From NCBI RefSeq assembly GCF_029714405.1, contig NZ_CP121650.1:2423001-2487000 (forward strand): 64,000 bases of DNA. Direction: 5' to 3'. This stretch comes from Bradyrhizobium sp. CB82. GTDB taxonomy: Bacteria > Pseudomonadota > Alphaproteobacteria > Rhizobiales > Xanthobacteraceae. A model generated the notes under the pieces. The model had not been told where the DNA came from, searched no databases, and was given only the letters and a program-made list of their open reading frames with translations. Below, one piece after another: positions 12,681 through 20,909 of the stretch. Every line of letters begins with the position of its first letter. The stretch's first letter is position 1. The translations under genes were made by a program, and so were the position numbers.

Positions 12681-14217
12681 AGGCTGTGAATCTTTTTGAC
12701 TGCTCGCAAGCGGTATAGCCGAAAGCTGGTGCTGTGTGATTCTCTTGCGGTGATGGATTCGCAGGAGGGATGATGGCCGCTGATGAATTGTTTGGGGATC
12801 TGCCGGAGCAGGCAAAGCCGCAAGCCGGTGCGGCGCCGCTCGCAGCGCCGCGACTTCGTGAGCCCCAACGCGATCAAATCGAGTTGCGAGCAGTGGATAT
12901 CGAGAGCCTGATCGGGGAAGACCATCCGGTGCGCCTGATCTGGTCCTATGTCGAGGAACTCGACCTGAGTGAGCTGGAGAACCGGATCAAAGCGCGGGGC
13001 GATCGGCCCGGTCACCCCGCGACATCGCCGCGGCTTTTGCTGGCGCTGTGGCTCTATGCCACCAGCGAGGGCGTCGGCAGCGCGCGCGCGTTGGAGCGGC
13101 TTTGCGAGAGCCATGACGCCTATCGTTGGCTGTGTGGCGGGGTGTCGGTGAACCATCACACGCTGGCGGACTTCCGGGTCGGTTGCGCCGACCTGCTCGA
13201 CCGGCTGCTTTGCGAGCATTTGGCGGTGCTGGCGAAGGTCGGCCTCGTCAATCTGGAAACGCTGGCGCAGGACGGTGTTCGGGTCCGGGCCAGCGCCGGG
13301 GCCGCTTCGTTCCGGCGGGAGGCGACGCTCGATCGGCACCTGGCCTTGGCTGAGGCGGTGGTGGAAGACCTCAAACGCGAGGTTGACGCTCGTTCGGATG
13401 CTAGCAATCAGCGCATGAAGGCCGCCAAGGAGCGCGCCGCGCGTGAGCGCAGAGCGCGCGTCAAAGCGGCGCAGACGGCGCTCGCCGAAATCAAGCAGCA
13501 GCGCAAGGAGCGCGAAGAAAAGCGCGGCAACGGCAAGAAGCCGAAAGAGCCGCGGGCCTCCACGACGGACGCCGACGCACGGGTCATGAAGATGGCCGAC
13601 GGCGGCTTCCGCCCCGCCTACAACGTGCAGGTGACGAGTGCCGCCGGCCAGCCGATCGTCGTTGACATCAAGGTCTGCAACACCGGGTCCGACCGCGGCC
13701 TGATGCGGCCCATGCTGGAGCGGCAGCGCGCGCGTCCTGGCGGGTTGCCCAAGGACCATCTCGTCGATGGCGGCTTTGGCAGTGCCGAGGACATCGAGTG
13801 GGCGCACGCCGAGGGCATCGATATCTTTTGCCCGCCCACTCAATCCAAGCACGGCACCGATCCCCATCTACCGCGACGCGGCGACGGCCCGGGGGTGTTG
13901 GCCTGGCGTGCGCGCATGGCGAGCGAAGAGGGCAAGGCCCGATACAAGCCCCGGTCGATTTGCGAGTGCATACATGCCCGCTGGCGCAACTGGGACCTGC
14001 GCCAATTGACCGTGCGCGGCCTCGAAAAGGTCCGCGCCGTCGTGCTCTGGTACGCCCTCGCCAACAACATCCTGCAAGGCAACCGCCTCGCTAGCGCATA
14101 GAGGAGCGTTCATCGACATCCCCCAACCTCGCCACAGCCGCCCAGCCCACGCGTTGCCACGACGAGGAACTGCCACATCCTTCGATGACCACGCAAAACG
14201 AGAAAGATTGGCAAGCT
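12681..14217 (+). mobile_element. IS1182-like insertion sequence, about 1537 bp
   Basis: Imperfect ends: left AGGCTGTGAATCTTT, right read inward AGCTTGCCAATCTTT. CTCAG flanks both sides (12676-12680 and 14218-14222). Joining the flanks restores a continuous family-B repeat (CTTCGCGGTCTCCTCAG + GATGAGG), which is independent support for the borders. The transposase is intact. Confidence 0.8.
12770..14101 (+). CDS. IS1182 family transposase
   Basis: A 443-residue transposase of the IS1182/IS5-like DDE group. The N-terminal domain has DHPVRLIWSYVEELDLS and PRLLLALWLYATSEGVGSAR, followed by LCGGVSVNHHTLADFRV. The catalytic Asp regions are LAQDGVRVRASAG and KDHLVDGGFGSAEDIEWA, and the C-terminal Glu region is near VRGLEKVRAVVLWYALANN. 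A charged coiled segment rich in Lys, Arg and Glu (residues 205-265) lies between them. An ATG pair at 12770/12773 follows GGAGGG. The frame is complete, so the element could be mobile. Confidence 0.92.
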   Translation: MMAADELFGDLPEQAKPQAGAAPLAAPRLREPQRDQIELRAVDIESLIGEDHPVRLIWSYVEELDLSELENRIKARGDRPGHPATSPRLLLALWLYATSEGVGSARALERLCESHDAYRWLCGGVSVNHHTLADFRVGCADLLDRLLCEHLAVLAKVGLVNLETLAQDGVRVRASAGAASFRREATLDRHLALAEAVVEDLKREVDARSDASNQRMKAAKERAARERRARVKAAQTALAEIKQQRKEREEKRGNGKKPKEPRASTTDADARVMKMADGGFRPAYNVQVTSAAGQPIVVDIKVCNTGSDRGLMRPMLERQRARPGGLPKDHLVDGGFGSAEDIEWAHAEGIDIFCPPTQSKHGTDPHLPRRGDGPGVLAWRARMASEEGKARYKPRSICECIHARWRNWDLRQLTVRGLEKVRAVVLWYALANNILQGNRLASA

Positions 14218-15390: not shown

Positions 15391-16444
15391 CATGCGGGTA
15401 TTAATTGCGACTGACGCCTGGCATCCGCAGGTTAACGGTGTGGTGCGGACGCTGACCTCGCTTGCCGCCGCCGCCAAGGCGCTCGACGTCGAGGTCGAAT
15501 TCCTGACGCCGGACGGCTTTCCATCGTTGCCGCTGCCGACCTACCCGGGCCTGCGCATCGCGCTGCCAAGCGGACGCGAGATCGCCCGGCGGATCGAAGC
15601 GGCGGCTCCGGAAGCGCTGCACATCGCGACAGAAGGTCCGATCGGCTGGGCGGCGCGCGCCTACTGCCGCCGTCGCGGGCTCGCCTTCACCACCTCCTAC
15701 ACCACGCGCTTTCCGGAATATGTCTCGGTGCGATCAGGCATTCCGGCGAGCGTCGGCTACGCCGTGCTGCGGCACTTCCACGATGCCGCCGCCATGACGA
15801 TGGTGGCGACGCCGTCGCTGCGACAGGAGCTCTCCGAGCGCGGCTTCAAGCGGCTCGGCTTCTGGACCCGCGGCGTCGACACCACGCTGTTTCATCCCGA
15901 CGATCCTGCCAAGCTCGACCTGCCGCGGCCGATCTTCATGGCGATGGGCCGCGTGGCCGTGGAGAAGAATCTCGACGCGTTCCTCTCGCTCGATCTGCCC
16001 GGCACGAAGGTCGTGGTCGGCGATGGGCCGCAGAAGCCGCAGCTGATGCGCAAATATCCCGATGCGGTCTTCCTCGGCGAGAAAAAGGGCGCCGACCTCA
16101 CCTCGCATCTCGCGGCCGCCGACGTCTTCGTGTTCCCGAGCCTCACCGACACCTTTGGCGTGGTGCAACTCGAGGCGCTGGCCTGTGGCACGCCAGTCGC
16201 TGCGTTTCCGGTGACGGGTCCGAAGGACGTCATCGCCGACCATCCGATCGGCGCGATCGACGACGATTTGCGCGCCGCGTGCCTGCGCGCGCTCTCCATG
16301 TCGCGCGAGACCTGCCGCAACTTCGCTCTGGCGCGCTCCTGGGAAAACAGCGCGCGTCAGTTCGTCGGAAACCTCACCTCACTCCAGCCCAGCCGCATCC
16401 TGCGTCCGACGCCCGTCATGGCGCGGCGGCCGGTGCGCGGCTGA
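15391..16444 (+). CDS. GT4 family glycosyltransferase
   Basis: A 351-residue GT-B enzyme. The start is placed at ATG 15391 (MRVLIATDAWHPQVNGVVRT), which matches the usual N-terminus of this group; the upstream open frame looks non-coding. The C-terminal donor-binding half shows FVFPSLTDTFGVVQLEALACG, the E-x7-E signature of retaining GT4 enzymes. The sequence type resembles transferases that make glycolipids or add mannose or glucuronic acid to diacylglycerol. Because a phospholipid N-methyltransferase follows 34 bases later, a membrane-lipid acceptor is a reasonable inference. The substrate is not visible from sequence. Confidence 0.85.
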
Positions 16445-16478
16445 CCATGAACATTCTGAACCAAACGGGACTTTGCTA

Positions 16479-17168
16479 ATGGCCAAGATCATGAAGTTTG
16501 AAGAGTCGCAGCAGCTCGACCTCGACCGCGGCACGGTCGAGCAGGCCTATGACCGGTGGGCGCCGGTCTATGACCTCGTGTTCGGCGGCGTGTTCGCCAA
16601 GGGCCGGCAGGCCGCGATATCAGCGACCAACAAGCTCGGCGGCCGCGTGCTCGAGGTCGGCGTCGGTACCGGCATCTCGCTGCCGATGTATGCGCCGAAC
16701 GTGCGTATCTTCGGCACCGACATTTCGGAGGCGATGCTCGACAAGGCGCGCCGCCGCGTCAGCGAGCTCAAGTTGAAGAACGTCGAGGGCCTCGCGGTGA
16801 TGGACGCCGAGAAGCTCGAATTTCCCGACGATTCCTTCGACGTCGTGATGGCGCAATATGTCGTCACCGCCGTGCCCAATCCGGAAGTCGCGCTGGACGA
16901 GTTCGCGCGCGTGCTGCGTCCCGGCGGCGAATTGATCATCCTGACCCGCGTCAGTGCGGACGACGGTATGCGCCGCTTCATCGAGCAGAAGCTCCAGCCG
17001 GTGGTACGTCACCTCGGCTTCCGCACCGCCGAGTTCGCCTGGTCGCGCTACGCCAAGTGGCTCGCGAGTGCGCATGGCATGGAGCTCGCCGAGCGCCGCC
17101 TGATTCCGCCGCTCGGCCATTTCTCGCTGGTCCGCTTCCGTAAAGTTCAGGTCGCCAAGGCGGCCTGA
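16479..17168 (+). CDS. phospholipid N-methyltransferase, PmtA/Rhodobacter type
   Basis: A 229-residue class I SAM-dependent methyltransferase. The SAM-binding loop is VLEVGVGTGISLPMYA near residue 56, followed by IFGTDISEAMLDKARRR, and FDVVMAQYVVTAVPNPE as motif II. The N-terminal helix region (QAYDRWAPVYDLVFGGVFAKGR) resembles Rhodobacter PmtA, which methylates phosphatidylethanolamine toward phosphatidylcholine. Bradyrhizobium is known to carry several such enzymes (PmtA and PmtX types) with different step specificity; which one this is cannot be told. It probably shares a transcript with the glycosyltransferase. The ATG at 16479 has only a weak ribosome site. Confidence 0.8.
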   Translation: MAKIMKFEESQQLDLDRGTVEQAYDRWAPVYDLVFGGVFAKGRQAAISATNKLGGRVLEVGVGTGISLPMYAPNVRIFGTDISEAMLDKARRRVSELKLKNVEGLAVMDAEKLEFPDDSFDVVMAQYVVTAVPNPEVALDEFARVLRPGGELIILTRVSADDGMRRFIEQKLQPVVRHLGFRTAEFAWSRYAKWLASAHGMELAERRLIPPLGHFSLVRFRKVQVAKAA

Positions 17169-17182
17169 ATGTGTGTTGTTGC

Positions 17183-17294
17183 CCCTCATGGTGAGGAGGC
17201 GCGTCAGCGCCGTCTCGAACCATTGAGGCCCGGCTGTCGCCAGGCGGGCCTCGCCCCTCGAGACGCTTGCTTCGCAAGCTCCTCGGGGTGAGGG
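17183..17294. repeat. REP-like repeat, family B, two opposed units
   Basis: CCCCTCATGGTGAGGAGGCG at the left and CTCCTCGGGGTGAGGGG at the right, with GTCTCGAACCATTGAGG and CCCTCGAGACGCTTG between. It fills the gap after the methyltransferase gene and can fold into a long hairpin that may end its transcript. Confidence 0.7.
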
Positions 17295-17410
17295 GATAGA
17301 GTAACCGTGCGTCACCGCGTCGCGCACATCGTCATATGACAAATTGATGATGTCACACGCCCTACATCGAATCCCTGTATCTCCTGACCCGAAGCCTCTT
17401 GGGGGAAAGA

Positions 17411-18070
17411 ATGATCAAAGAGTTTCTTGAGCAGCTGCGCATCCAGCGCTGGGACGACCACCGCTACTATCACCACAGCCGCATCAATCAGAGCCTGCAC
17501 TTCGTCAGCGCGCTGAGCTTCCTGCTCGCCTATGTCTGGCTGTTCATCGACCCCGTGGTCTCGGGACTGGTCGGCTGGCTGGTCTCGATGACCTCGCGCC
17601 AGGCCGGTCACTTCTTCTTCGAGCCGAAGGGCTACGACCACATCAACCAGGCGACCCACGAGCACAAGGAAGAGATCAAGGTCGGCTACAACCTTCAGCG
17701 CAAGGTCGTGCTGATGACGATCTGGGCGCTGTCGCCGCTGGTGCTGGTCCTCGATCCGACGCTGTTCGGCCTGTTCAAGCCGTTCGCGAGCGCAACCGAT
17801 TTCATGCGGCAGGTCGCAAAGATCTGGCTCGCGGTCGGCGCCGGTGGCTTGTTGTTCCGCACCGTGCACCTGTTCTTCATCCGCGACATCGAGACCGGCC
17901 TCGTCTGGATGACCAAGATCCTGACAGACCCGTTCCACGACCTGATGCTCTACCGCAAGGCGCCGCTCGCGCTCATGCGCGGCGAGCTGATGGACCCGGG
18001 CTTGCATCTGATTCCCGAGCACACGCTGGGCTTCATCCCCGAGCACACGCTCGAAGAGCAGCACGCCTGA
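17411..18070 (+). CDS. membrane protein, possibly Mpo1/DUF962-like
   Basis: A 219-residue protein with several membrane segments (FVSALSFLLAYVWLFIDPVV; a second around VVLMTIWALSPLVLVLDPTL; a third around IWLAVGAGGLLFRTVHLFFI). The His-rich N-terminus (DDHRYYHHSRINQSLHF) and the motif SRQAGHFFFEP recall Mpo1-like proteins, iron-dependent dioxygenases of 2-hydroxy fatty acids. The match is distant and rests on motif spacing only. I use ATG 17411, which has GGGGGAAAG upstream. The C-terminus carries a short direct repeat (PEHTLGFIPEHTL). It sits among lipid enzymes, which fits a role in membrane lipids. Confidence 0.6.
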   Translation: MIKEFLEQLRIQRWDDHRYYHHSRINQSLHFVSALSFLLAYVWLFIDPVVSGLVGWLVSMTSRQAGHFFFEPKGYDHINQATHEHKEEIKVGYNLQRKVVLMTIWALSPLVLVLDPTLFGLFKPFASATDFMRQVAKIWLAVGAGGLLFRTVHLFFIRDIETGLVWMTKILTDPFHDLMLYRKAPLALMRGELMDPGLHLIPEHTLGFIPEHTLEEQHA

Positions 18071-18160
18071 GCGCGCAGCTCTCGCCCAATACTCCGATGT
18101 CCAAAGGTTACGTCATGCCCGGGCTCGTCCCGGGCATCCACGTGTTGAGTGCTTCTTTGC

Positions 18161-18306
18161 CTCTCCCCGCGTGCGGGGAGAGGCCGGATCGCATCGCAGA
18201 TGCGATCCGGGTGAGGGGGAGTCTCCGCGGGTCTCTCTCCTACCGTCCCCGTGGAGACTCCCCCTCACCCCAACCCTCTCCCCGCAAGCGGGGAGAGGGG
18301 GAGGAG
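18161..18306. repeat. intergenic palindromic repeat, family A (CTCTCCCCGC)
   Basis: Two palindromes, CTCTCCCCGC-GT-GCGGGGAGAG on the left and CTCTCCCCGC-AA-GCGGGGAGAG on the right, enclose GGTGAGGGGGAGTCTCCGCG. The same family occurs at 21550 and 29912. It fills the gap between the convergent genes at 18070 and 18346. Confidence 0.8.
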
Positions 18307-18345
18307 AGGCCGCGTCCCGGGAGGATTATGATGGAAGGTGAAGCC

Positions 18346-20010
18346 TCAGCGCCCGAAGCGCCTGGCCAGCATCTCTTTCAGGATCCGCCGCTTGATGCGC
18401 TTGTTGGTGAGGCCGGCATCGTGCCACCAGAAGCCGTCGGCCTTCATCTTCTCCGCGGCGTGGACGAAGCGTTCGGCGACCTCGGTGAAATCGGCATCGG
18501 TGTAATTGAGGCTGAAGATCAGCCGTCCGGTGCCGACCCAGCTCAAGGCGAGGCCCTCGGCGCGCAGGTAGTATTGCAGCATCCAATTGTAGCGCGACGG
18601 CTGTGTGTACGTCACCGTCCAGATCGAGGACAGGTTGGCAACCCGCACCGGCAGATCGGCATCGGTCAGCATCTGGTTGAGCTTTTGCGCGCGGCCGTTC
18701 CAGGTCGCATCCAACCCGTCATAGATTGCACGGAAGTTGGGGCTCGACAGCCGGCTCAGGAACTCGTCCATCGCCGTCATGACGTAGGGATGCGAGTTGA
18801 AGGTGCCGCGGGCGAAGCAGACGTCGGCGGGACGATCGTCGCGGAAGCGGCGCATCAGGTCCTTGCGGCCGCAGACCACGCCGACGGGGAGGCCGCCGGC
18901 GAGGCTCTTGCCGTAGGTCACCATGTCGGCGCGGACGCCAAAATATTCCTGGGCGCCGCCGGCGGCGAGACGGAAGCCGACGAAGACCTCGTCGAAGATC
19001 AGGACGATGCCGCGTTCGGTGCAGACCTCGCGCAGCTTCTTCAGCCAGTCGGTGTAAGCGTCGCGGTCGAAATTGCCGCCGCGCGAGCTATCGACCAGCG
19101 AGGAATCGCCCGGCGCGTTCGCGTTCGGATGCAGCGCCTGGAGCGGATTGACCAGCACGCAGGCGATGTCGCGTCGCGTGCGCAGCACGTGCAGCGTCTT
19201 CTCCGACATCTCGGCGAGCGTGTAGGTCTCGTGCGCGGCAGTCGGGTTGCCGACGCCGGGCTGCACGTCGCCCCACCAGCCGTGATAGGCGCCGGCGAAC
19301 CGCACCAGATGCGTACGCTTGGTGTGGTAGCGCGCGAGGCGCACCGCCTGCATCACGGCTTCGGTGCCGGACATGTGGAAGGAGACTTCGTCGAGGCCCG
19401 AGATCCGGCAGAGCCGCGCCACGTTCTCGGCGATCACGGGATGGTAGGGACCAAGCACAGGACCGAGCGCATGGGCGCGCTTTTCGCCTTCCCCGATGCA
19501 CTCCTTGTAGAAGTCGTTGCCAAAGATGTTGACGCCGTAGGATCCCGTGAGGTCGTAGGAGACGTTGCCGTCGAGATCGGTGACGGTGACGCCACTGGAC
19601 GACTGCATGAAGCTCGAGGTGCCCAGGTTCTCGCGCACCAGGCGCGAGAACTGGAACGGCACCCGGTAGCTTTCGGTGAATTGCAGGTCGGAGATTCTCT
19701 CTGCCGCCTCCTTGGTCAGCGCGCGCCCCTTGGCGTAGCGCTGGGCGTAGAGGTCAGCGAGACGGAAGAAGCCGTCATGACGCTGCGCCGCGACGTTGGC
19801 GGGCGCGCCGTCACAGGCGAAATAGTCGTCGCCCTCGAACTCGTAGAACGGGATCAGCCGCGCCACCCGGCGCGACATCTTGGAGTGCCCGGAGAGCGAG
19901 CGGTGCTTTGCGCGGGACAGCTCGATCCGCGCCTTCAGCTTCGGGAAGGCGGCGGCAGCGGACGCTGCGGCGGCCACGGACAATGAGAGAATCGGGAGTG
20001 TCGTTTCCAT
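18346..20010 (-). CDS. class III PLP-dependent aminotransferase with N-terminal extension
   Basis: A 554-residue protein of the glutamate-1-semialdehyde aminomutase / class III aminotransferase type. The PLP Lys is in MVTYGKSLAGGLPVG, the cofactor Asp in IVLIFDEVFVGFRLA, and the phosphate-binding loop in SFHMSGTEAVMQAVRLARY. It is over 100 residues longer than simple aminotransferases: an Ala-rich hydrophobic N-terminus (LPILSLSVAAAASAAAAFPK) suggests a membrane anchor, and residues 45-120 form an extra domain. It is divergent from the phosphatidylserine decarboxylase gene with only 35 bp between starts. The amino acceptor is unknown; a lipid headgroup or precursor is an inference from the neighbours. 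Confidence 0.8.
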   Translation of the reverse strand: METTLPILSLSVAAAASAAAAFPKLKARIELSRAKHRSLSGHSKMSRRVARLIPFYEFEGDDYFACDGAPANVAAQRHDGFFRLADLYAQRYAKGRALTKEAAERISDLQFTESYRVPFQFSRLVRENLGTSSFMQSSSGVTVTDLDGNVSYDLTGSYGVNIFGNDFYKECIGEGEKRAHALGPVLGPYHPVIAENVARLCRISGLDEVSFHMSGTEAVMQAVRLARYHTKRTHLVRFAGAYHGWWGDVQPGVGNPTAAHETYTLAEMSEKTLHVLRTRRDIACVLVNPLQALHPNANAPGDSSLVDSSRGGNFDRDAYTDWLKKLREVCTERGIVLIFDEVFVGFRLAAGGAQEYFGVRADMVTYGKSLAGGLPVGVVCGRKDLMRRFRDDRPADVCFARGTFNSHPYVMTAMDEFLSRLSSPNFRAIYDGLDATWNGRAQKLNQMLTDADLPVRVANLSSIWTVTYTQPSRYNWMLQYYLRAEGLALSWVGTGRLIFSLNYTDADFTEVAERFVHAAEKMKADGFWWHDAGLTNKRIKRRILKEMLARRFGR

Positions 20011-20045
20011 GACAACAAGCGCTAACCGGACCTGCTGACAGATTC

Positions 20046-20909
20046 ATGACAGTCAAAGCCCTCATCGCCTCTTTCACCCAGCAGGAAGACCTCAATTTCC
20101 TGCTGACAAACCGCATCCCCCGCGCGGCACTGACTCGCTTCATGGGCTGGTTCTCCAAGATCGAGAACCCGCTGGTGCGGGACGGCTCGATCGCGCTGTG
20201 GAAGCTGTTCTCCGACCTCGATCTGTCGGAGGCGCGCAAGACCCATTTCAGGAGCCTGCACGACTGCTTCACGCGGGAGCTCAAGCCGGGCCTGCGACCT
20301 TACGATCCGGATCCCGCGATCGTCGCCAGTCCCTCGGACGGCATCGTCGGTGCGCACGGCAAGATCGCCGACACCGAGCTGTTCCAGGTCAAGGGCGCGC
20401 CCTATTCGCTGCTCGATCTCCTCGGCGATCCCGCGCTGGTCGAGCAGCATCGCAACGGCTCTTTCGTCACGCTGCGGCTGACCTCGAGCATGTATCACCG
20501 CTTCCATGCGCCTTATGACGCGCATGTCGAACGCGTCACACTGATCCATGGCGACGTCTGGAACGTCAACCCGATCGCGCTGAAGCGGGTCGAGCGCCTG
20601 TTCTGCAAGAACGAGCGCGCGGTGATCCGTACGCATTTGTCGACCGGCGAGGCGGTGACGCTGGTGCCGGTGGCGGCCATCCTGGTTGCGAGCATCCGGC
20701 TGCACTTCCTCGACATGGTGCTGAATGCGCAGACCAGGGGGCCGGTCAACTTCCCCTGCGACGTCAACGTGACGAAAGGCGAGGAGCTCGGCTGGTTCGA
20801 ACACGGCTCGACCATCATCATCCTCGCGCCCGGCGATTTCGCGTTCTGCGACGGGATCGCCGAGGGCGCGCGCATCCGCGCGGGGCAGGCGCTATTGCGC
20901 CGGAAGTAG
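20046..20909 (+). CDS. psd: phosphatidylserine decarboxylase, LGST-type proenzyme
   Basis: A 287-residue proenzyme. It has the long-form layout: helical N-terminus (IPRAALTRFMGWFSKIENP), FRSLHDCFTRELKPGLRP, VASPSDGIVGAHG, TLRLTSSMYHRFHAPYD with the conserved His residues, and near the end the self-cleavage site in WFEHGSTIIIL, where cleavage before Ser makes the pyruvoyl group. It turns phosphatidylserine into phosphatidylethanolamine at the membrane. Rhizobia usually carry a short Psd next to pssA; no pssA is here, so this is probably a second enzyme with a separate job. The start codon has no clear ribosome site, and 35 bp separate it from the divergent aminotransferase. Confidence 0.85.
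   Translation: MTVKALIASFTQQEDLNFLLTNRIPRAALTRFMGWFSKIENPLVRDGSIALWKLFSDLDLSEARKTHFRSLHDCFTRELKPGLRPYDPDPAIVASPSDGIVGAHGKIADTELFQVKGAPYSLLDLLGDPALVEQHRNGSFVTLRLTSSMYHRFHAPYDAHVERVTLIHGDVWNVNPIALKRVERLFCKNERAVIRTHLSTGEAVTLVPVAAILVASIRLHFLDMVLNAQTRGPVNFPCDVNVTKGEELGWFEHGSTIIILAPGDFAFCDGIAEGARIRAGQALLRRK

What the first reader, a model, noticed from the sequence alone, without database searches (positions are those of the whole stretch)
15391..20909. Possible undescribed membrane-lipid pathway locus
A GT4 glycosyltransferase, a PmtA-type N-methyltransferase, an Mpo1-like membrane protein, a membrane-anchored class III aminotransferase and an LGST-type phosphatidylserine decarboxylase lie within 5.5 kb. 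No pssA is present, so the decarboxylase is probably a second copy. An aminotransferase with an extra N-terminal domain next to a decarboxylase is not part of standard phosphatidylcholine synthesis. Together they could build or remodel an aminolipid or glycolipid headgroup. The enzyme classes are seen; the shared pathway is inference.
Basis: partly seen in the sequence, partly recalled or inferred. Interest (0 to 1): 0.72.

Follow-up and report, generated by a model that had tools for sequence, protein, structure and literature searches.

The report
Conserved uncharacterised membrane-lipid gene cassette
Five neighbouring genes in this soil bacterium form a gene set that other bacteria also keep together, and they probably make an apparently undescribed amine-carrying membrane lipid, possibly for times when phosphate is scarce.

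Summary
Five intact genes fill 15392-20909: GT4 glycosyltransferase, PmtA-like methyltransferase, Mpo1-like membrane protein, class III aminotransferase (opposite strand) and phosphatidylserine decarboxylase (PSD). Order and strands are kept in 77 of 80 named loci, nearly all Bradyrhizobium (the other 3 end at contig edges), and in 23 of 26 loci from other genera of the family, none of which holds any of six window flank genes (16 of the 26 are at least 17 kb long). The core is aminotransferase, Mpo1-like protein and PSD; it recurs elsewhere in Pseudomonadota with other gene orders. Aminotransferase and Mpo1-like genes occur together; each mismatch sits at a cut contig. The PSD is a second, divergent copy. 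The GT4 is 59% identical to a GT4 beside a PlcP-like gene in this genome, and 12 of 26 family loci outside the genus hold a PlcP-like gene: a hint of phosphate-stress remodelling. I conclude that this is a real, apparently undescribed lipid cassette; substrate and product are not shown.

The parts
15392..16444 (+). GT4 glycosyltransferase, 350 aa; paralogue of the GT4 that follows a PlcP-like phosphoesterase elsewhere in the genome
   Evidence: 59% identity over 331 aa to the L237 GT4; present in 23 of 26 family loci outside the genus
16479..17168 (+). PmtA-like phospholipid N-methyltransferase, about 229 aa
   Evidence: best PDB match 8ys9; not found in L175, in the three L193/L194/L197 loci or in the six one-strand loci
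17411..18070 (+). Mpo1-like (DUF962-like) membrane protein, 219 aa, with near-invariant H17, H21, H22, N26, H30, H67, E71, D173
   Evidence: hydrophobic segments and helices
18346..20010 (-). class III PLP aminotransferase, 554 aa, with a hydrophobic N-terminal helix (probable membrane anchor) and helical region; catalytic domain from about residue 133; predicted PLP lysine K368
20011..20045 (.). 35-bp divergent intergenic region; a conserved element overlaps the PSD start codon and matches the PhoB-box consensus at 13 of 14 positions on the minus strand (20035-20052)
   Evidence: equally readable as a core promoter element
20046..20909 (+). phosphatidylserine decarboxylase, second copy, 287 aa; GST motif (G254-S255-T256) and D98, H151, H154 near-invariant

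Best explanation
This is a dedicated lipid-modifying cassette. Its fixed core is a probably membrane-anchored PLP aminotransferase, an Mpo1-like membrane protein taken to be an oxygenase, and a dedicated PSD-type pyruvoyl decarboxylase; a lipid glycosyltransferase and an N-methyltransferase are lineage-dependent accessories. Proposed order: the Mpo1-like enzyme oxidises a membrane lipid to give a carbonyl; the aminotransferase turns that carbonyl into an amine on the lipid (or swaps the two); the PSD decarboxylates an amino-acid headgroup to an amine; PmtA methylates the amine where present; GT4 adds a sugar to the same or a companion lipid. The product would be an amine-bearing, perhaps glycosylated, membrane lipid used in envelope remodelling, likely connected with phosphate stress. 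Shown: the unit, its core, the co-occurrence, the second PSD, the GT4 kinship and the neighbourhood. Inferred: substrate, order of steps, product, regulation.
For: Linkage: identical order and strands in 77 of 80 named loci and 23 of 26 family loci outside the genus, with 0 of 26 holding any of six window flank genes. Core complete in 46 of 47 diverse loci (L169 is cut at a contig end, and L183, a 4.4-kb contig, was left out of the 47). Co-occurrence: aminotransferase in 33 and Mpo1-like in 32 of 149 family genomes; 25 and 25 of 398 phylum genomes with 24 shared; G264, G652 and G777 are the mismatches, each at a cut contig. At least two PSDs in 25 of 26 cassette genomes searched. GT4 59% identical to the GT4 next to a PlcP-like gene; plcP-agt pairs make glycolipids under phosphate shortage (PMC4796936, section 13). 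PlcP-like gene in 12 of 26 family loci outside the genus and in L193. PhoU-like genes in 7 and UDP-glucose dehydrogenase-like genes in 4 of 47 loci; PhoD confirmed in the 2 loci checked. Aminotransferase has a hydrophobic N-terminal helix and is closest to the MycA AMT domain.
Against: No enzymatic, expression or lipid data. In the window's own genome the PlcP-like gene is about 0.85 Mb away, and 14 of 26 family loci outside the genus show none in the stretch fetched (some stretches are short); of 21 whole genomes searched, 8 have it elsewhere and one 17 kb away. The PhoB-box-like element scores 11-13 of 14 in the genus and 8-12 outside it. GT4 is missing from 8 of 47 loci and PmtA from 11, so neither is essential to the core. 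The Mpo1-like match is below Pfam's cut-off in the window protein and its model matched no solved fold. The hydropathy test was positive for the window aminotransferase only; the six relatives listed were negative, but their sequences began at the match and lack the true N-terminus. The closest solved relative of the aminotransferase is a synthetase (AMT) domain, not a headgroup enzyme. On the Sphingomonas plasmid, lptF/lptG and an acyl carrier protein gene lie 5-11 kb away, which fits the rivals.
Confidence: 0.5

Rival explanations
1. The core modifies acyl chains rather than headgroups: the Mpo1-like enzyme shortens or oxidises a 2-hydroxy- or keto-acyl chain and the aminotransferase makes a long-chain amine or beta-amino fatty acid, which is then placed in a lipid whose phosphoethanolamine part comes from the PSD.
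For: Closest solved relatives of the aminotransferase are the MycA AMT domain of a hybrid polyketide/peptide synthetase, with which it shares a GTFN(S/T)HP stretch that the two glutamate-1-semialdehyde aminomutases shown lack, then beta-transaminases. Pfam names Mpo1 a 2-hydroxy-palmitic acid dioxygenase. On the Sphingomonas plasmid an acyl carrier protein gene lies about 11 kb away.
Against: A PSD as strict core member points to headgroup chemistry. I recognised no acyl carrier, thioesterase or ketosynthase in the nine neighbour clusters I inspected; the other clusters were not annotated.
Confidence: 0.2
2. The genes are a stress-regulated duplicate of phosphatidylcholine synthesis (PSD plus PmtA), with the aminotransferase and Mpo1-like protein as passengers.
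For: PSD and PmtA are consecutive steps of a known route; Bradyrhizobium diazoefficiens has several Pmts with different preferences (PMC8590670, passages).
Against: PmtA is the dispensable part: the core without PmtA is kept in L175, L193, L194, L197 and the six one-strand loci, whereas aminotransferase, Mpo1-like and PSD are not separated except on cut contigs. No pssA is in the cassette.
Confidence: 0.08
3. The aminotransferase runs the other way: PE made by the PSD is deaminated to a phosphatidyl aldehyde, which is oxidised or glycosylated, as a way to remodel or dismantle PE when phosphate is short.
For: Aminotransferase and PSD share a short divergent promoter region in the window and most related loci; PlcP-like and PhoU-like neighbours, PhoD in the two loci checked.
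Against: No direct evidence on direction; a PlcP-type enzyme, where present, already starts glycolipid synthesis from phospholipids (PMC4796936, section 13).
Confidence: 0.12
4. The cassette decorates a cell-envelope glycan or lipopolysaccharide with an amine-bearing group, and the lipid enzymes only supply the donor.
For: GT4 enzymes often build envelope glycans; several weak NCBIfam GT4 hits are polysaccharide enzymes. On the Sphingomonas plasmid lptF and lptG (LPS export) lie 5-7 kb from the aminotransferase.
Against: The window GT4 is a close paralogue of a GT4 paired with a PlcP-like gene; I recognised no polysaccharide assembly gene in the nine neighbour clusters inspected.
Confidence: 0.1

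Closest known systems
PlcP-Agt glycolipid remodelling under phosphate limitation
   Same: A GT4 of close kin (59% to the GT4 beside the PlcP-like gene in this genome); PlcP-like and PhoU-like neighbours in part of the relatives, PhoD in the two loci checked.
   Different: The section on plcP gene contexts in PMC4796936 (section 13, read) names no aminotransferase or PSD; the words aminotransferase and phosphatidylserine (decarboxylase) do not occur in the main texts of PMC4796936 and PMC9239053 (Mpo1 was not a search word there). In the window's genome PlcP is not adjacent.
PssA-Psd-PmtA route to phosphatidylethanolamine and phosphatidylcholine
   Same: PSD and a PmtA-like methyltransferase.
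   Different: No pssA here; this PSD has no significant BLASTP match to the pssA-linked PSD (best E 0.27); aminotransferase and Mpo1-like protein are core.
MycA AMT domain (mycosubtilin synthase aminotransferase)
   Same: Best solved match by sequence (E 3.7e-46) and fold (E 3.7e-27).
   Different: Free-standing, probably membrane-anchored, about 27% identical, no synthetase recognised nearby.
Glutamate-1-semialdehyde 2,1-aminomutase (HemL), a common annotation
   Same: Same class III fold; databases name many relatives so.
   Different: 173 bits against a 527-bit cut-off; lacks the GTLSGNP stretch seen in the two aminomutases shown and carries an N-terminal hydrophobic helix.
Mpo1/DUF962 fatty-acid dioxygenase family
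   Same: PF06127 signal and conserved His/Asn/Glu pattern.
   Different: Window protein is below the Pfam cut-off and has a further conserved C-terminal half.

Membership tests
Phosphatidylserine decarboxylase (PF02666 / TIGR00163) | score above curated cut-off | tested here: met
   183.8 bits vs 22; 163.6 vs 111.75
Phosphatidylserine decarboxylase (PF02666 / TIGR00163) | GST self-cleavage site and catalytic Asp/His kept | tested here: met
   G254 S255 T256, D98, H151, H154 near-invariant in 127 sequences; which of them are catalytic is recalled
Phosphatidylserine decarboxylase (PF02666 / TIGR00163) | acts on phosphatidylserine | not testable with these tools
   -
PmtA phospholipid N-methyltransferase (NF045882) | score above that model's cut-off | tested here: not met
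   153.4 bits vs 390; best PDB hit is another PE N-methyltransferase
PmtA phospholipid N-methyltransferase (NF045882) | methylates PE | not testable with these tools
   -
Mpo1-like (PF06127) | score above curated cut-off | tested here: inconclusive
   window 20.1 and L194 20.5 bits vs 24 (not met); relative L205 24.7 (met)
Mpo1-like (PF06127) | iron-dependent lipid oxidation | not testable with these tools
   -
Glutamate-1-semialdehyde aminomutase (TIGR00713) | score above curated cut-off | tested here: not met
   173.2 vs 527.3 bits
Class III aminotransferase (PF00202) | domain score and PLP lysine | tested here: met
   115.7 vs 30.5 bits; K368 invariant and aligned with a lysine of 6kfm; that this lysine binds PLP is recalled
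MycA-type AMT domain | part of a polyketide/peptide synthetase | tested here: not met
   free-standing 554-aa protein
MycA-type AMT domain | acts on a carrier-bound acyl chain | not testable with these tools
   -
PlcP-Agt remodelling system | GT4 paired with PlcP | tested here: not met
   in the window's genome the PlcP-like gene is about 0.85 Mb away with its own GT4; near the cassette in 12 of 26 family loci outside the genus
PlcP-Agt remodelling system | PhoB control | tested here: inconclusive
   13/14 box-like element overlapping the PSD start, 8-12 of 14 outside the genus
Standard PssA-Psd-PmtA phosphatidylcholine route | PSD of the pssA-linked kind with pssA nearby | tested here: not met

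The most novel reading that the evidence does not exclude
A widespread, patchily distributed cassette in Pseudomonadota makes a class of membrane aminolipid not yet described, by oxidation, transamination and decarboxylation of a lipid-borne group. One concrete form: phosphatidylglycerol (or a glycolipid) is oxidatively cleaved or oxidised by the Mpo1-like enzyme and aminated in the membrane by the aminotransferase, giving amine lipids by a route that does not need CDP-diacylglycerol or pssA.
Probability: 0.3. Interest if true: 0.88.

Novelty: new variant of a known kind. Interest (0 to 1): 0.7.

Why it matters
Thousands of database proteins resemble this aminotransferase (7,999 scored in each of two capped searches, though those counts may include other class III enzymes), and the source names shown among the 120 listed of each are general ('glutamate-1-semialdehyde 2,1-aminomutase' or 'class III-fold enzyme'). 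If the cassette makes a membrane lipid, annotations of soybean symbionts, sphingomonads and several other Pseudomonadota miss a lipid pathway, and how these bacteria adjust their envelope becomes testable with three gene deletions and one lipidome comparison.

Tried and rejected
PhoB box: the 13/14 match at 20035-20052 looked strong and the published consensus is the same (PMC8528852, passage), but one half lies on the PSD start codon and the other half decays outside the genus to a pattern that could be a promoter element of a leaderless gene (my reading). With up to 3 mismatches the window holds no more such sites than shuffles (3 found, 3.00 expected). Kept as a lead only.

N-terminal half of the roughly 900-aa GT4 proteins: I read PHP-phosphoesterase-like motifs (recalled), but Pfam up to E 0.1 (three proteins) and the PDB up to E 10 (one protein) gave no support, so I do not claim it.

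Other neighbours: apparent ABC-transporter-type and shadow-frame clusters were set aside; of the clusters only nine were inspected and ten neighbour proteins scanned with Pfam. Two were not used as main evidence: a protein with the lysylphosphatidylglycerol-synthase membrane region (cluster in 13 of 47 loci, one member scanned) and an MFS transporter in L194.

Second Mpo1-like gene in G843: no GT4, PmtA or PSD match and only a 24% class III match nearby, read as an orphan paralogue.

Literature: searches for the gene combination returned no paper (0 papers each); some searches listed other work, not this combination in the titles and abstracts shown. The library holds open-licence papers only, so 'undescribed' means not found there. 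PMC6445935 (Caulobacter glycolipids) was seen in passages only and does not mention an aminotransferase or phosphatidylserine.

Own slips: I listed genome G149 by confusing it with locus L149; it is left out (21 of 22 used). Those 21 are not all 26 family genomes outside the genus: G139, G219, G236, G248 and G265 were not given to that call, and their loci show no PlcP-like gene. In one search one query frame was wrong; it was redone.
Full report
What is there. Positions 15392-20909 hold five intact genes: a GT4 glycosyltransferase (15392-16444, +), a PmtA-like N-methyltransferase (16479-17168, +), an Mpo1-like membrane protein (17411-18070, +), a class III aminotransferase (18346-20010, -) and a PSD (20046-20909, +). 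The aminotransferase and PSD are divergent with 35 bp between their starts. The window is G000:C1:2423001-2487000 of a 10.1-Mb genome.

Is the PSD a second copy? Yes. The genome has two PSDs. The other, at about C1:4078 kb, is directly followed by a CDP-alcohol phosphatidyltransferase of the pssA kind and shows no significant BLASTP similarity to the window PSD (best E 0.27). I searched 26 of the 52 cassette genomes known: 25 have at least two PSD matches, one of them (G625) only by a partial 22-bit match; the exception, G652, is a fragmented assembly whose single PSD is on another contig than its aminotransferase.

Are the genes kept together? One scan of named genome contigs returned 548 relatives of the aminotransferase, of which the best 80 were kept. 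With 32 loci taken from unnamed family genomes they were searched with the five proteins and six flank proteins (counted again). In the 80 named loci, 77 have all five in the same order and strands; the three others (L066, L110, L113) end at contig edges. In 26 loci from other genera of the family, 23 have all five in the same arrangement, two lack GT4 (L151, L165) and one is cut (L169), while none of the six flank genes was found in any of the 26; 10 of the 26 are shorter than 17 kb, so the absence is informative mainly for the other 16. In the own genus the flanks are mostly kept (YkuD-type gene 76 of 80, NUDIX 80 of 80).

How far does it reach? The aminotransferase was found in 33 of 149 family genomes (12 of 47 genera), 3 of 289 class genomes including the window's own and 25 of 398 phylum genomes (10 of 212 genera). 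In a sample of 121 order genomes only the three own-genus genomes had a full-length match; 33 others passed the E limit with partial class III matches of 27-40% identity. Seventeen further loci, including a Sphingomonas parapaucimobilis plasmid, show what is essential. Two have the window's arrangement (in L196 the GT4 match covers 85 residues only). Four have PmtA, Mpo1-like, aminotransferase and PSD without GT4. One has only the core. Three have the core plus a distant GT4 (30-34% identical) in the other orientation. Six have all genes on one strand in another order, with the GT4 homology at the C-terminal end of a protein of 893-958 aa in the three checked. One (L183) is a 4.4-kb contig with the aminotransferase alone. 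Over 47 diverse loci (L183 left out) the aminotransferase and PSD are in 47, Mpo1-like in 46 (L169 is cut), GT4 in 39 and PmtA in 36.

Co-occurrence. Using a seven-sequence Mpo1-like profile, samples of the same size gave 32 of 149 in the family, all among the 33 with the aminotransferase; the missing one is G264, where the aminotransferase match ends at the contig end. In the phylum sample 25 of 398 matched, 24 of them also having the aminotransferase. G777 (Mpo1-like only) carries PSD, Mpo1-like and GT4 pieces on a contig that ends there; G652 (aminotransferase only) has it on a 4.4-kb contig. That the missing partners were lost in assembly is inference. These genomes are related, so the numbers are not independent trials, but the pattern spans more than one class.

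The glycosyltransferase and phosphate. The window GT4 is 59% identical over 331 residues to a GT4 immediately downstream of a calcineurin-type phosphoesterase elsewhere in the same genome (L237). That phosphoesterase is 69% identical to the one beside the cassette in L159. I call it PlcP-like by kinship and context; the NCBIfam hits are to LpxH-type models below their cut-offs, and no characterised PlcP sequence was compared. PlcP-Agt pairs make mono-glucosyl- and glucuronosyl-diacylglycerol in phosphate-starved bacteria (PMC4796936, section 13 read; PMC8528852, passages read). A PlcP-like gene is in the fetched stretch of 12 of 26 family loci outside the genus and of L193. Of 21 of these 26 genomes searched whole (22 handles were given; G149 was my mistake; five were not given), each has one or two copies; in 12 it lies within 4.3 kb of the aminotransferase, in one 17 kb away, in 8 elsewhere (distances). 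It is found on either side and in both orientations. In L149 it lies about 0.1 kb upstream of the likely start of the cassette GT4. PhoU-like genes occur in 7 of 47 loci (Pfam-confirmed in L159), PhoD phosphatase genes in L149 and L159, UDP-glucose dehydrogenase-like genes in 4 of 47 loci (confirmed in L197 and L205). L193 also has a diglucosyl-diacylglycerol-synthase-like enzyme (68.6 bits, below the 500-bit cut-off). This supports a link with phosphate-stress lipid remodelling, but in Bradyrhizobium itself the neighbourhood is different.

The aminotransferase. Databases name many relatives glutamate-1-semialdehyde aminomutase, but the window protein scores far below that model. By sequence and predicted fold (mean pLDDT 81.4) its nearest solved relative is the aminotransferase domain of mycosubtilin synthase, followed by beta-transaminases. 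It shares with the former a GTFN(S/T)HP stretch where the two aminomutases shown have GTLSGNP. K368 aligns with the lysine of that domain. It has a hydrophobic N-terminal stretch (residues 4-23) and about 100 further residues before the catalytic domain with a strongly conserved beginning. The same hydropathy test found no such stretch in six relatives, whose sequences had been cut at the match start; the membrane anchor is therefore probable, not shown.

The Mpo1-like protein. Weak Pfam match (20.1 bits against 24), and of two relatives scanned one passes the cut-off. H17, H21, H22, N26, H30, H67, E71 and D173 are near-invariant in 126 sequences, consistent with a metal site; that is inference. 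No solved fold matched.

Mechanism. The strict pairing of a PLP aminotransferase, a pyruvoyl amino-acid decarboxylase and a membrane oxygenase-like protein suggests building or exchanging an amine on a lipid. A pyruvoyl decarboxylase needs an alpha-amino acid substrate (established chemistry, recalled). The simplest order is oxidation to a carbonyl, transamination, decarboxylation, then methylation or glycosylation. The reverse use of the aminotransferase on PE, and an acyl-chain amine, remain possible. None of this is shown.

Novelty. Component enzymes belong to known families; the combination was not found in the searched open-licence library. Hence a new variant of a known kind (bacterial lipid-modification gene set), with a fair chance that the product is a new lipid class.

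Noticed in passing
12770-14101: Transposase-like gene (443 aa; label mine, not scanned) between a lyase-type gene (label mine) and an L,D-transpeptidase gene; an ORF of the same length and same visible start is at L237:2568-3899 in the same genome. In L060 the two neighbours are about 0.2 kb apart, so the insertion looks recent.
   Followed up: partly
L087 (JAUEPE010000024.1): Record titled Frankia sp. RB7 carries a locus 89% identical to the Bradyrhizobium aminotransferase with the whole cassette; probably a mislabelled or contaminated assembly.
   Followed up: no
L272 (G000:C1:1990378-1991013): A second Pmt-like gene in the same genome, 55% identical to the cassette one, has one in-frame TGA in the match.
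   Followed up: no
G886, G212, G265: Mpo1-like gene split in two frames (G886) or with one in-frame stop (G212, G265); pseudogenes or assembly errors.
   Followed up: no
L274 (G843:C1:3838000-3854000): Second Mpo1-like gene, 53% identical, with no GT4, PmtA or PSD match nearby and only a distant class III aminotransferase (24%) next to it.
   Followed up: yes
L198, L200, L201, L203, L204, L205: GT4 homology in the one-strand loci; in the three checked (L200, L203, L205) it is the C-terminal part of an 893-958-aa protein whose N-terminal half matches nothing in Pfam (E up to 0.1); one (L205) was also searched in the PDB without a match.
   Followed up: partly
L206 (NZ_CP155753.1): On the Sphingomonas plasmid the cassette lies within about 12 kb of lptF/lptG, a class I/II aminotransferase, an acyl carrier protein and an NAD(P)H-binding protein gene, the last three possibly a sphingolipid set.
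   Followed up: no
20011-20045: The element before the PSD start is nearly unchanged across the Bradyrhizobium loci while the adjacent bases vary; its role is unknown.
   Followed up: partly
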